Shown: piece by piece, positions 11,532 to 36,208 of the stretch
Layout: every line of letters starts with the position of its first letter
Position numbering within the stretch: the stretch's first letter is position 1
Assembly: GCF_002736145.1 (NCBI RefSeq)
Contig: NZ_CP024160.1
Span: forward strand, 248,001 to 312,000
Direction: 5' to 3'
DNA from: Collinsella aerofaciens
Lineage (GTDB): Bacteria > Actinomycetota > Coriobacteriia > Coriobacteriales > Coriobacteriaceae
Length of the DNA stretch: 64,000 nt
Notes under the pieces: generated by a model
Databases searched by the model: none
What the model was told of the DNA's origin: nothing
Seen by the model: the letters and a program-made list of their open reading frames with translations, nothing else
Translations under genes and position numbers: made by a program

Positions 11532-12842
11532 TTAATGGGCGAATTCGACCCGGGTGGTGTCTCGCTGCGCTTCGGGCAGTTCCCCGTACAGCGGATGGTC
11601 TTCGAGCCTAAAGCGTTCGACCTGCTCGGGGGCGCGACCGCGCACAAAGAGCCATGAGCGATCGATCGGCGTCGCCATAAGCGTGCTGGGCAATGCGTCG
11701 GCTCGGTCGGAAAACACTCGGGCGCTCTCGGGGTCTTGGAACGCCAGCACCAGATGCGTGTCGCAGTTGCCCATGATGGAGCGTGCGCGTGCCTCGCCAT
11801 AGAGCGCATCGAGCTGGTTGGTCGACTGCAGCAGCAGCGTTGCCCAGATGTTGCGGCTTCGGATAATCGAGAGCACGTTGTCGATCTGGGGGATCTGCAG
11901 ATTTGCGAAGTCATCGAGCATAAAGCGCACGGGTACGGGCAGGCTGCCGTCGGGCTGCCTATCGGCCTCACGAATGAGGCCCATAAACGCCTGCGAAATA
12001 AAGAGGCCGGTCAGCGGATCGAGATTGCGGTCAATATCGCTCACGGTTACAAACAGGGCGCGGGGGGTGTGTCCCATGGAAGCGAAGTCCACCTGATGGC
12101 ACTCACGATAGAGCTGTGCCGCACCGTCGAATCCCAGACACATGACCTTTTCGGCAAGGATGCCGACGATGCTCGCGTGCATGCGCTCGGCATTTTGCGT
12201 AATGGCGTAGCGCCGCCATAGCGAGAGGGCATAGCTTTGGGGGTCGGTCGTGATCAGGTCGTCAAACAATCGACCCGTGGCGCCGTCCTGCAGGTGCTCG
12301 ATCAGCTTGATGACCGAGCTGATCGTCTGCTCGTCGGCGGGTAGCTGTTCGGTGGCGTAGGCAATAAGACACGACAGCAGGTTTGCCGCCGCATGATCCC
12401 AAAAAGGCTGGTTGTTGTCCTCGATGGGGCAGATGGCCTTTGCCACCGAGAGGATGTCCTGCTGGTTGGGCCTGCCGTCCGCCTTGCGGCGAATGTGCCT
12501 CAGGGGGTTGTAGCCGCAGCGCTCGATACCGGGCGCAAGGGCCGGGACGGTGTTGAGGTCGGCGAAGTTGAGGCATTGCACGCGGTAACCGTGGGCTGCC
12601 AGCACGGGTCCCACTTCGCGACAGAGCGTGCCTTTGGTGTCGAGCACGATGTAGCTTGCGTTCATTTGCAGCAGGTTGGGCTTGAGGACGTTTCGGGTCT
12701 TGCCGGCTCCCGAGGGGCCGATCACAAGTGCGTTGTTATTGAGTCCCGTTTGGCGGGTGTCGCAGGAAAGCGTTCGATCCTTGGCGAGGATGGTGGACGA
12801 TGCGGACCCAGATGCGGCGACGCGGCTGGCGAGGTTAGACAT
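11532..12842 (-). CDS. VirD4/TraG-like conjugative coupling ATPase, no membrane domain
   Basis: The 436-residue protein has Walker A GPSGAGKTR near residue 45 and Walker B RFMLDDFANL, followed by QIPQIDNVLSIIRSRNIW and LLLQSTNQLDALYG, all typical of type IV coupling proteins that feed DNA or protein to a secretion channel. The ATG at 12842 has a GGAGG site. The usual N-terminal membrane helices are missing. It overlaps the ClpP-like gene by 8 bp. No relaxase or type IV channel gene is nearby, so its partner is unknown. Confidence 0.85.
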   Translation of the reverse strand: MSNLASRVAASGSASSTILAKDRTLSCDTRQTGLNNNALVIGPSGAGKTRNVLKPNLLQMNASYIVLDTKGTLCREVGPVLAAHGYRVQCLNFADLNTVPALAPGIERCGYNPLRHIRRKADGRPNQQDILSVAKAICPIEDNNQPFWDHAAANLLSCLIAYATEQLPADEQTISSVIKLIEHLQDGATGRLFDDLITTDPQSYALSLWRRYAITQNAERMHASIVGILAEKVMCLGFDGAAQLYRECHQVDFASMGHTPRALFVTVSDIDRNLDPLTGLFISQAFMGLIREADRQPDGSLPVPVRFMLDDFANLQIPQIDNVLSIIRSRNIWATLLLQSTNQLDALYGEARARSIMGNCDTHLVLAFQDPESARVFSDRADALPSTLMATPIDRSWLFVRGRAPEQVERFRLEDHPLYGELPEAQRDTTRVEFAH

Positions 12843-18458: not shown

Positions 18459-19253
18459 TTAATCTAGGCGCTGGCCGTCGGCGCGCACATGCTCGCACCC
18501 GCGCCCGCTGACCTGGCGGATAACCTCGCCGGCGATCATCTGTCCCATGATGGGCGGCATAAAACTGGCAGTTCCCAGCTCGGTGCGCTCGTGGATGTTG
18601 GAAGGGTCGCGGGGCTGTGTCTTAACCGATTCCTCGCAGCTAAACAGTACATGTAGGCTCTTGATTCCGCGCTTCTTACATTCTTTGCGCATAATGCGGC
18701 TCATGGGGTCACGTACCGTATCGAAAATATCGGCAAAGCGGAGACACTCGGGATGGAGCTTGTTGGCCCCGCCCATGGAGCTAACCAAACGAATGTCGTG
18801 GTCCTGAGCATATTTGGCAATGGTGAGCTTGGCCGAGATGGTGTCGATGGCGTCGACGACGTAGTCGAGCTTGCCGTCCGTCTGCTCCAAAACGCTCGAA
18901 AAGAACTCGTCGATGTTGTCGCTCAGCAGGTATTCAGTGCGCTTGATGACGGTGGCGGCAGGATTGATATCGTGGATCATGGCTTCCATCACGTCAACCT
19001 TGCGCTTGCCGACGGTGCTGTGAAAGGCGATGGCTTGGCGATTGATATTGCTGGGCGCGATGATGTCCTTGTCCAGAATGACGAAATGACCGATGCCGCC
19101 GCGGGCGAGTGCCTCGCAGCAGTTGGAGCCCACGCCTCCGCAGCCGAGCACCAGCACCGTAGCATCGGCGAGCTTATCGAGTGCCTCGCGGCCCATGATG
19201 ATCTCGAGCTTGGTGTCGCGTGTCTCGACGAGAGCGGCAGCGGTTTCGGTCAT
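18459..19253 (-). CDS. tcdA: tRNA threonylcarbamoyladenosine dehydratase (ThiF/E1-like)
   Basis: The 264-residue protein cyclises t6A37 of tRNA in an ATP-dependent step. It has the E1-like nucleotide loop LVLGCGGVGSNCCEALARGG, the ATP-contact segment SNINRQ, YVVDAIDTISAKL, and the TcdA-type SSMGGANKLHPE and SCEESVKTQP. I use the ATG at 19253 because CGGAGG is six bases away; an ATG two codons earlier abuts the site. It is cotranscribed with the TatD-like gene. Confidence 0.92.
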   Translation of the reverse strand: MTETAAALVETRDTKLEIIMGREALDKLADATVLVLGCGGVGSNCCEALARGGIGHFVILDKDIIAPSNINRQAIAFHSTVGKRKVDVMEAMIHDINPAATVIKRTEYLLSDNIDEFFSSVLEQTDGKLDYVVDAIDTISAKLTIAKYAQDHDIRLVSSMGGANKLHPECLRFADIFDTVRDPMSRIMRKECKKRGIKSLHVLFSCEESVKTQPRDPSNIHERTELGTASFMPPIMGQMIAGEVIRQVSGRGCEHVRADGQRLD

Positions 19254-19339
19254 AGACATCCTCCGATGGGGAAGCGAATCGTGTTTTAGCTATTGCCATT
19301 ATAGGTGTTATCGCGATTCCATTTGAGCCCTTGGGCTTG

Positions 19340-19368
19340 TTGAAATGGGGTCGGGGTTCGCATAAGAT
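19340..19368 (+). promoter_or_regulatory. Promoter of the possible small structured RNA
   Basis: TTGAAA (19340-19345) and TAAGAT (19363-19368) have 17-bp spacing. Transcription would start near 19375. Confidence 0.7.
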
Positions 19369-19374
19369 TGAAGC

Positions 19375-19471
19375 AGATGGCACCCGTTGCAGCGGGTTGG
19401 CCAACTCCAAAACACGTTTGTAGCGTGAGAAGTGGCCGTCTTCGCATTACGCGGGGGCGGCTATTTTTTTT
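19375..19471 (+). ncRNA. Putative ~97-nt structured RNA (sRNA or leader) ending in a terminator
   Basis: Between a good promoter and a run of eight T (19464-19471) lie three hairpins. H1 is 19382-19386 with 19393-19397. H2 pairs GGCCA (19399-19403) with TGGCC (19433-19437) and encloses a CACG/CGTG stem. The terminator stem is 19435-19445 with 19451-19461. H2 and the terminator share bases 19435-19437, so they exclude each other, as in riboswitches. No open frame is convincing. I cannot match it to a known family by eye. Confidence 0.5.
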
Positions 19472-19481
19472 GAGTGTAAGA

Positions 19482-19505
19482 TTAGATAGTTAGACAAACA
19501 TCTAA
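19482..19505. promoter_or_regulatory. Inverted repeat in front of the ArsR gene, probable autorepressor operator
   Basis: TTAGAT and ATCTAA are arranged symmetrically over 24 bp and lie just before a TATAGT box (19514-19519). ArsR/SdpR repressors usually bind AT-rich palindromes at their own promoter. Confidence 0.5.
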
Positions 19506-19553
19506 ATATTGAGTATAGTGTGCGCGTCATGAGAGATGATGAGAGGGGGTCTT

Positions 19554-19832
19554 ATGCCGGGAGAGGGTTTTAAGGCGCTTGCCGATCCAACGCGACGGCG
19601 CATTTTGGAGTTGCTGCGCGAGGGCAATTGCACGGCGGGGGAGCTTGCCGAGCATTTCGATATCAGTAAGCCGTCGCTGAGTCATCACTTGGCGACGCTC
19701 AAAAACGCCGGGTTGGTGACCGACGAGCGCCATGGCCAAAACATCGTATACAGCTTAAACACCACCGTCATGCAGGATTTGATTGGCTGGTTTATGGGCT
19801 TTACAAACACGGAAGGTGATAAGGATGAATAA
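19554..19832 (+). CDS. ArsR-family (SdpR-like) transcriptional repressor
   Basis: The 92-residue winged-helix protein has FKALADPTRRRILELL and the recognition helix DISKPSLSHHLATLK, typical of the SdpR branch, with no metal-binding CxC motif. The ATG at 19554 has a GAGAGGGGG site. It overlaps the SdpI-like gene by 8 bp, which matches the Bacillus sdpRI arrangement where SdpR represses its own operon. Confidence 0.9.
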   Translation: MPGEGFKALADPTRRRILELLREGNCTAGELAEHFDISKPSLSHHLATLKNAGLVTDERHGQNIVYSLNTTVMQDLIGWFMGFTNTEGDKDE

Positions 19833-35965: not shown

Positions 35966-36030
35966 CGCTATCCAGACGGCGCTACCTGCGCATCGAATCC
36001 GCATAGCGTGGACCCAATGTCCGGATAGCG
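35966..36030 (-). promoter_or_regulatory. Expression platform of the lysine riboswitch
   Basis: Arms 36019-36030 and 35966-35977 pair over 12 bp with one G-U. The 3' arm runs directly into the AGG of the lysA ribosome site. No T tract is present, so control is probably at translation initiation. Confidence 0.6.
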
Positions 36031-36178
36031 CTCCCGCATTGCTGCAGACAGTCCTGCGGGTGTTTCCCGCAGGCCCACCAGGCTGTTCGTGCCCGAAAAA
36101 CCCAGTTCGGCGGGTTTCGCCTCCCCGCAGGGTCAAAGTCTGCCGACTCGCCCGCGGCTCATCGTGCCCGCGCCTCTA
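36019..36178 (-). promoter_or_regulatory. Lysine riboswitch (L box)
   Basis: Read on the minus strand, the leader has the conserved parts of the lysine aptamer in order: AGAGGCGCGGGC at the first stem, ATGAG in the turn motif, a GGCGAAACCCGCCGAACTGGG segment, the AGCCTGGTGGG junction, and GGACTGTCTGC at the 3' side. The aptamer spans about 36036-36178. The following arm 36019-36030 is part of the expression platform. It controls the lysA-dapA-dapB-dapH operon by lysine feedback. Confidence 0.88.
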
Positions 36179-36208
36179 TCAAGTGGTAAAGACCCTACCA
36201 CGTTGCAC

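What the first reader, a model, noticed from the sequence alone, without database searches (positions are those of the whole stretch)
19375..19471. Candidate new structured RNA with mutually exclusive hairpins
A good promoter, two hairpins and a terminator with eight T define a 97-nt transcript. The second hairpin and the terminator compete for three bases, like an antiterminator switch. The next genes are an ArsR/SdpI pair 80 bp away.
Basis: partly seen in the sequence, partly recalled or inferred. Interest (0 to 1): 0.6.

Follow-up and report, generated by a model that had tools for sequence, protein, structure and literature searches.

The report
Orphan antitoxin RNA, gut actinobacteria
The 97-base RNA is the left-over antitoxin half of a previously undescribed type I toxin-antitoxin family that is widespread in Collinsella and its relatives, whose membrane peptide (apparently controlled by DNA damage) has been deleted at this spot; such systems are reported as unknown from this bacterial phylum.

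Summary
The transcript is well defined and its structure is conserved by covariation (96% of cells paired, 21 of 32 pairs with double changes). It is not an ArsR leader switch. The same RNA occurs in 28 of 43 Collinsella genomes and in two other families of the order, at several loci, and has no Rfam match. In most copies a convergent 26-32 aa single-helix peptide gene ends inside the base of the RNA's terminator. All 26 peptide genes found in the genus overlap such an RNA. Thirteen RNAs lack the peptide, including both in this genome. That asymmetry, the antisense overlap and LexA boxes at many peptide promoters (14 of 26 exact; 0.04 expected) identify a type I toxin-antitoxin family, apparently SOS-controlled. 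The window holds an orphan antitoxin. At this tcdA-arsR locus three alleles (full pair, orphan RNA, empty) are scattered over the flanking-gene trees. The toxin matches no Pfam or NCBIfam family above cut-off. A 2025 paper lists no type I system from Actinomycetota. Toxicity and expression are untested.

The parts
19340..19368 (+). sigma-70-type promoter of the RNA (TTGAAA-17-TAAGAT)
   Evidence: core TTCGCATAAGA kept in all 14 RNA-bearing alleles of the locus
19369..19471 (+). orphan antitoxin RNA (CM match 19369-19469; likely start about 19373-19375, end in the T-run)
   Evidence: G000:C1:267369-267469; structure
19375..19406 (+). 5' domain: helix 1 (19375-19381 with 19400-19406) enclosing helix 2 (19383-19387 with 19392-19396); carries box A (GAUGG) and box B (GCCAACUCC), which recur in sense in the toxin mRNA 5'UTR of relatives
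19413..19427 (+). helix 3, CACG/CGUG hairpin; the alternative extended form pairs about 19399-19408 with about 19428-19437
19429..19471 (+). terminator, 17-18 bp stem plus T8; in relatives with the toxin gene its base is the complement of the toxin's last Lys codon and TAG stop
19470..19481 (.). deletion junction: relatives with the full pair carry about 160 bp more here (toxin ORF, 5'UTR, LexA-box promoter)
   Evidence: intergenic 290-292 bp (orphan) versus 451-453 bp (pair)
19482..19519 (+). arsR promoter (TAGACA-17-TATAGT) overlapping the inverted repeat TTAGAT...ATCTAA; independent of the RNA
19554..19832 (+). arsR-family regulator gene, followed by the sdpI-like gene to 20529; neighbours, not part of the system
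18459..19259 (-). divergent tcdA/moeB-like gene; left flank of the locus, not part of the system
   Evidence: used as flank; family named by eye

Best explanation
The RNA is the antisense-RNA antitoxin of a new type I toxin-antitoxin family of Coriobacteriales. In complete loci a promoter, in many cases with a LexA box, drives a short mRNA for a 26-32 aa single-helix membrane peptide. A convergent promoter drives the ~97-nt RNA, whose 3' end overlaps the end of the toxin gene. RNA and toxin mRNA form a long duplex, which presumably triggers RNase III decay and blocks the toxin; DNA damage would raise toxin mRNA above the antitoxin. At the window's locus the toxin gene and its promoter are deleted, and the RNA with its promoter and terminator stays. 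As an orphan it most likely acts in trans, silencing toxin mRNA of related copies that arrive or leave by recombination (anti-addiction). Shown: conserved structure, convergent overlap, coding conservation, one-sided co-occurrence, LexA boxes, the three alleles. Inferred: expression, toxicity, duplex decay, SOS induction, trans action.
For: Covariance model: RNA in 28/43 Collinsella genomes and 16 genera of the order. Convergent hydrophobic ORF with its stop at a fixed place, 9 nt inside the RNA 3' end, in most Collinsella copies; others. All 26 toxin homologues in 43 genomes overlap an RNA, and 13 of 39 RNAs lack a toxin. Purifying selection on the ORF: pN/pS about 0.2-0.36 in three groups. 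GAACN4GTTC in 14 of 26 toxin promoters versus 0.04 expected; the own-genome lexA promoter carries GAACGAATGTTC and CGAACAGTTGTTC, the first being the complement of the toxin box GAACATTCGTTC. Pair, orphan and empty alleles aligned at this very locus. Orphan RNA diverges at 0.051 versus 0.10-0.12 in its flanks.
Against: No transcript, toxicity or neutralisation data. The window itself has no toxin gene, nor does the rest of its genome. LexA boxes are missing or degenerate in about half of the toxin promoters (10 of 26 have two or more mismatches). The 3' end of the toxin mRNA is not defined by a clear terminator, so the length of the duplex is uncertain. Orphan RNAs are less constrained than paired ones relative to flanks, so orphan function may be waning.
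Confidence: 0.86

Rival explanations
1. A cis-acting leader or attenuator (riboswitch-like antiterminator) for the arsR-sdpI operon.
For: Position 80 bp upstream on the same strand; alternative helix sharing bases with the terminator.
Against: arsR has its own promoter after the terminator, kept intact in 8 genomes without the RNA; the RNA lies next to other genes at other loci; the partner that tracks it is the convergent peptide gene.
Confidence: 0.03
2. The RNA is a trans-acting regulatory sRNA with cellular targets, and the convergent peptide is a benign small membrane protein rather than a toxin.
For: Orphan RNAs are kept in 13 cases without the peptide; the structure is conserved throughout.
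Against: The peptide never occurs without the RNA (26/26), the signature of a poison with its antidote; the peptide has the size, hydrophobicity and basic tail of type I toxins; LexA boxes as in tisB and dinQ.
Confidence: 0.08
3. The window RNA is a relic of a deleted pair (the family is a toxin-antitoxin system, but this copy no longer has a function).
For: Toxin missing in the whole genome; orphans are more relaxed than paired copies relative to flanks.
Against: It still diverges about half as fast as its flanks; promoter core and terminator are kept across seven genomes of different species; the orphan allele is spread among lineages.
Confidence: 0.25

Closest known systems
txpA/RatA, bsrG/SR4 and yonT/SR6 of Bacillus subtilis (type I)
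   Same: Small hydrophobic toxin; [quoted passage not shown] 3' ends overlap in txpA/RatA (PMC3531473); SR6 is also about 100 nt (PMC5848175)
   Different: No family-level toxin match (one member weak to Pfam Hol_Tox, E 0.07, under cut-off); different phylum; LexA-box promoters; no sign of a prophage or plasmid home
tisB/IstR-1 and dinQ/AgrB of Escherichia coli (type I, SOS)
   Same: 27-29 aa single-helix peptide under LexA control with RNA antitoxin (PMC8309996)
   Different: IstR-1 and AgrB are trans-acting with limited complementarity (PMC8309996); here the antitoxin is convergent and overlaps the 3' end
hok/Sok, fst (par) and aapA (type I systems with mRNA fold-back; from general knowledge)
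   Same: The toxin mRNA 5' end could pair with its own 3' end: boxes A and B recur in the toxin 5'UTR and in the RNA and co-vary
   Different: Fold-back is only predicted here; unrelated sequences
msoT1/msoA1 of Microcystis (2025)
   Same: Type I system outside the classical phyla (PMC12390103)
   Different: Cyanobacterial; tested in E. coli, unlike this one; no sequence comparison made here
Pfam PF16935 Hol_Tox (putative holin-like toxin)
   Same: Similar length, and an N-terminal pattern (MVTYETL...) in members from the Olsenella family
   Different: Only one member gives even a weak match, 13.4 bits against a cut-off of 23.3

Membership tests
Type I toxin-antitoxin system | small hydrophobic toxin gene next to or overlapping the RNA | tested here: met
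   26/26 toxin homologues in the genus overlap the RNA's 3' end; not present at the window copy itself, where it is deleted
[quoted passage not shown]
   convergent overlap at the toxin stop codon and 3'UTR; RNA structure conserved. Length of the duplex depends on the unmapped toxin mRNA 3' end
Type I toxin-antitoxin system | peptide toxic on expression, relieved by the RNA | not testable with these tools
   needs cloning in a laboratory strain
Type I toxin-antitoxin system | toxin never found without antitoxin, the reverse allowed (a signature, not a formal criterion) | tested here: met
   0 of 26 toxins without RNA; 13 of 39 RNAs without toxin
TxpA/BsrG-like or Hol_Tox (PF16935) toxin family | toxin scores above the family cut-off | tested here: not met
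   best 13.4 bits against 23.3; the others none
Any Rfam family | covariance-model score at gathering threshold | tested here: not met
   no match in 19250-19560 even at E up to 10
SOS-regulated type I system (tisB-like control) | LexA box in the toxin promoter, same motif as the host's lexA promoter | tested here: met
   14 of 26 exact boxes, and lexA carries the same motif; 10 of the 26 have two or more mismatches and are unproven
SOS-regulated type I system (tisB-like control) | toxin mRNA induced by DNA damage | not testable with these tools
   needs mitomycin C and Northern blot or RNA-seq
Riboswitch / attenuator leader of arsR | co-transcribed with and controlling the downstream gene | tested here: not met
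   arsR keeps its own promoter in genomes without the RNA; the RNA occurs at unrelated loci

The most novel reading that the evidence does not exclude
Orphan antitoxin RNAs in Collinsella are maintained as RNA anti-addiction alleles: at one chromosomal locus three alleles (toxin-antitoxin pair, antitoxin only, empty) are exchanged by recombination, and the orphan RNA lets a lineage drop or receive the SOS-controlled toxin without being poisoned.
Probability: 0.4. Interest if true: 0.75.

Novelty: new variant of a known kind. Interest (0 to 1): 0.64.

Why it matters
A 2025 paper states that type I systems were known only from Proteobacteria, Firmicutes and Tenericutes, with its own first cyanobacterial candidate (PMC12390103). 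This family would extend them to Actinomycetota, in common human gut genera. The alignment gives a covariance model and a peptide profile that can be searched for at once. The family combines LexA control of the toxin with a 3'-overlapping antitoxin, and offers a natural three-allele locus where the fate of orphan antitoxins can be tested.

Tried and rejected
Rfam at gathering and at E up to 10: nothing. Pfam, NCBIfam and PHROGs for the peptides: only chance-level hits. Plasmid, phage and viral-contig searches: none, so the system looks chromosomal. Mycolicibacterium pattern hits score 31-42 bits but are a GC-rich terminator between convergent protein genes, without a small hydrophobic peptide or the 5' domain: rejected. 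Weak hits in a second family of the class (G351, G379) and the G021:C14 and L082 hairpins look like ordinary terminators or unrelated repeats: rejected. Hairpin 2 as the toxin mRNA's terminator: the T-run is not conserved between families, so left open. Single descent of each allele at the locus: not supported, since pair, orphan and empty states are scattered on the tcdA and arsR trees (11-12 changes, minimum 2).

Full report
Observation. The window lies in a Collinsella-genus genome (G000, one contig of 2.31 Mb; named relatives are mostly Collinsella aerofaciens). At 19340-19471 there is a promoter, a three-part fold and a strong terminator. The 97-mer folds at -46.2 kcal/mol, z -4.5; the other strand does not stand out. 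No Rfam family matches.

Relatives. A DNA search of 58 genomes found the region or part of it in 21, always in the genus and with the RNA often at another place than arsR; the own genome has a second copy at G000:C1:106198-106298. A covariance model from 16 copies finds the RNA in 28 of 43 Collinsella genomes and has matches in 53 of 297 genomes of the order, in 16 genera and three families (a few of the weakest are ordinary terminators). One of these families contains Olsenella, inferred from matching contig G182:C46 with OMVT01000048.1 by length. A second model finds no convincing copy outside the order. On 50 distinct sequences 95.8% of cells pair, against 36-56% when partners are slid; 21 of 32 pairs show double changes; no shuffle of 500 reaches any measure. 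All four helices contribute. The alignment was fitted to the model, which leans the count towards the structure; the independent RNAalifold result on the first 16 sequences shows the same helices.

What it belongs to. In most relatives a small ORF runs against the RNA and ends in it or next to it. Examples are MSIDDVLTLLLLVIAAVELGIHIGGRMK at this same locus in other Collinsella, MNVSDVISLLALLIAAIELGLFIGRMK at an aldehyde-dehydrogenase-like locus, and MVTWTDLFAFCLVVIAAISLALELSRRRKE or MYVSWMELLTFCLVIVAVIELALRLRQ in another family. In nearly all Collinsella pairs the stop codon sits 9 nt inside the RNA's 3' end, so that the terminator base GGCUAUUU is the complement of the toxin's AAA-TAG: one stretch of DNA encodes the basic tail and stop of the peptide on one strand and the U-tract of the antitoxin on the other. 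In the other family the stop is mostly a few to some 20 nt beyond. The peptides are one hydrophobic helix with a basic tail (17-residue hydropathy 1.8-2.6) and are under purifying selection (pS 0.46/pN 0.16; 0.22/0.05; 0.31/0.09).

Co-occurrence. A peptide profile searched in the 43 genomes gives 26 clear hits, every one overlapping an RNA. Thirteen of 39 RNAs have no peptide: both copies in this genome, and those of G010, G006, G018 (two), G012, G021, G059 C21, G004 C8, G019, G061 C55 and G032. The profile was built from peptides found beside RNAs, but it was free to find them elsewhere and did not. A poison that never lacks its antidote, while the antidote may be alone, is the expected pattern of a toxin-antitoxin system.

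The window's locus. Aligning the tcdA-arsR intergenic region of 22 genomes shows three alleles: full pair (7; 451-453 bp), RNA only (7 including the window; 290-292 bp) and empty (8; 170-171 bp). The RNA-only alleles share one junction just after GGCTATTT, where the toxin ORF, its 5'UTR and its promoter are missing. The flanking-gene trees need 11-12 changes to place the three states, no better than shuffled labels, and identical arsR genes carry different alleles; I read this as exchange by recombination, though branch support is low. In the orphans the RNA diverges at 0.051 per site, against 0.100 and 0.116 in the flanks; in pairs 0.023 against 0.077 and 0.091. The orphan is therefore still constrained, less than when paired. 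arsR's own promoter and inverted repeat are kept in all three alleles, so the RNA is not its leader.

Control of the toxin. Toxin promoters carry GAACNNNNGTTC in 14 of 26 loci (expected 0.04 from shuffles), including members from all three families, and it is absent from the RNA promoters. The only lexA gene found in the window's genome has GAACGAATGTTC, CGAACAGTTGTTC and CGAACATTTGTTT upstream; the first is the reverse complement of the toxin box at this locus. Many of the 26 loci are closely related, so the count is not 26 independent events. SOS control is well supported for those loci and open for the rest.

RNA details. Box A (GAUGG type) and box B (GCCAACUCC type) of the RNA's 5' domain recur in sense in the toxin mRNA 5'UTR and co-vary with it (cognate score 11.3 versus 6.6, none of 20,000 permutations). 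If the toxin mRNA reads to the RNA's start, its 5' end can fold back on its 3' end, as in hok-type mRNAs; this is inference. In full-length RNA the terminator form is far more stable, so the alternative is at most a transient during transcription, or reflects the mirror-image hairpin in the toxin mRNA.

Cross-action. The window RNA is predicted to bind the pair-allele toxin mRNA almost as well as the cognate RNA (-216.6 versus -220.6 kcal/mol), and the toxin mRNA of the other Collinsella locus less well (-168 versus -223). Trans-silencing within the locus family is plausible and untested.

Literature. A 2025 paper states that type I systems were known only from three phyla, plus its own cyanobacterial candidate (PMC12390103). 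Searches for Collinsella, Eggerthella or Coriobacteriia with type I systems or antisense-RNA toxin-antitoxin systems gave nothing relevant. The library is limited to open papers, so priority is not proven. The layout is closest to txpA/RatA (3' overlap, PMC3531473) and the control to tisB (PMC8309996).

Verdict. A new, order-wide type I toxin-antitoxin family by anatomy and genome evidence; the window holds an orphan antitoxin RNA. Expression, toxicity and neutralisation remain to be shown.

Noticed in passing
L145:4700-7000 / L097 (Collinsella bouchesdurhonensis, NZ_LT699739.1): Two copies of the toxin-antitoxin pair, one with a TGA in the toxin, lie inside a CRISPR-like array (repeat GTTTGATTACCAGTTAGATCGGCACTGCTCCAAAAC); a repeat sits directly upstream of the intact toxin in place of its usual promoter. 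Reminiscent of CRISPR-linked toxin-antitoxin modules, but seen in one genome only.
   Followed up: partly
G000:C1:106198-106298 (L029): Second orphan RNA of the same family in the own genome, next to an aldehyde-dehydrogenase-like gene; other Collinsella carry the full pair there.
   Followed up: yes
L163, L160, L156 (G186, G249, G183): In another family of the order the system is multi-copy (up to five RNA hits in G186), with near-identical peptides such as MYVSWMELLTFCLVIVAVIELALRLRQ.
   Followed up: partly
L059 (G062): A complete pair in which the toxin's TAG stop has become TGG, extending the reading frame; a possible early step of toxin decay.
   Followed up: no
window 36018-36186 (-): Lysine riboswitch, 78 bits.
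   Followed up: no
window 11720-11807 (-): ARAGORN reports a tRNA with a four-base anticodon (ccat); no Rfam tRNA match there, probably a false positive.
   Followed up: no
Mycolicibacterium loci L123, L128, L129, L133, L134, L139, L146: A conserved terminator between two convergent protein genes (one MerR/HspR-like by eye) mimics the antitoxin's terminator sequence.
   Followed up: yes
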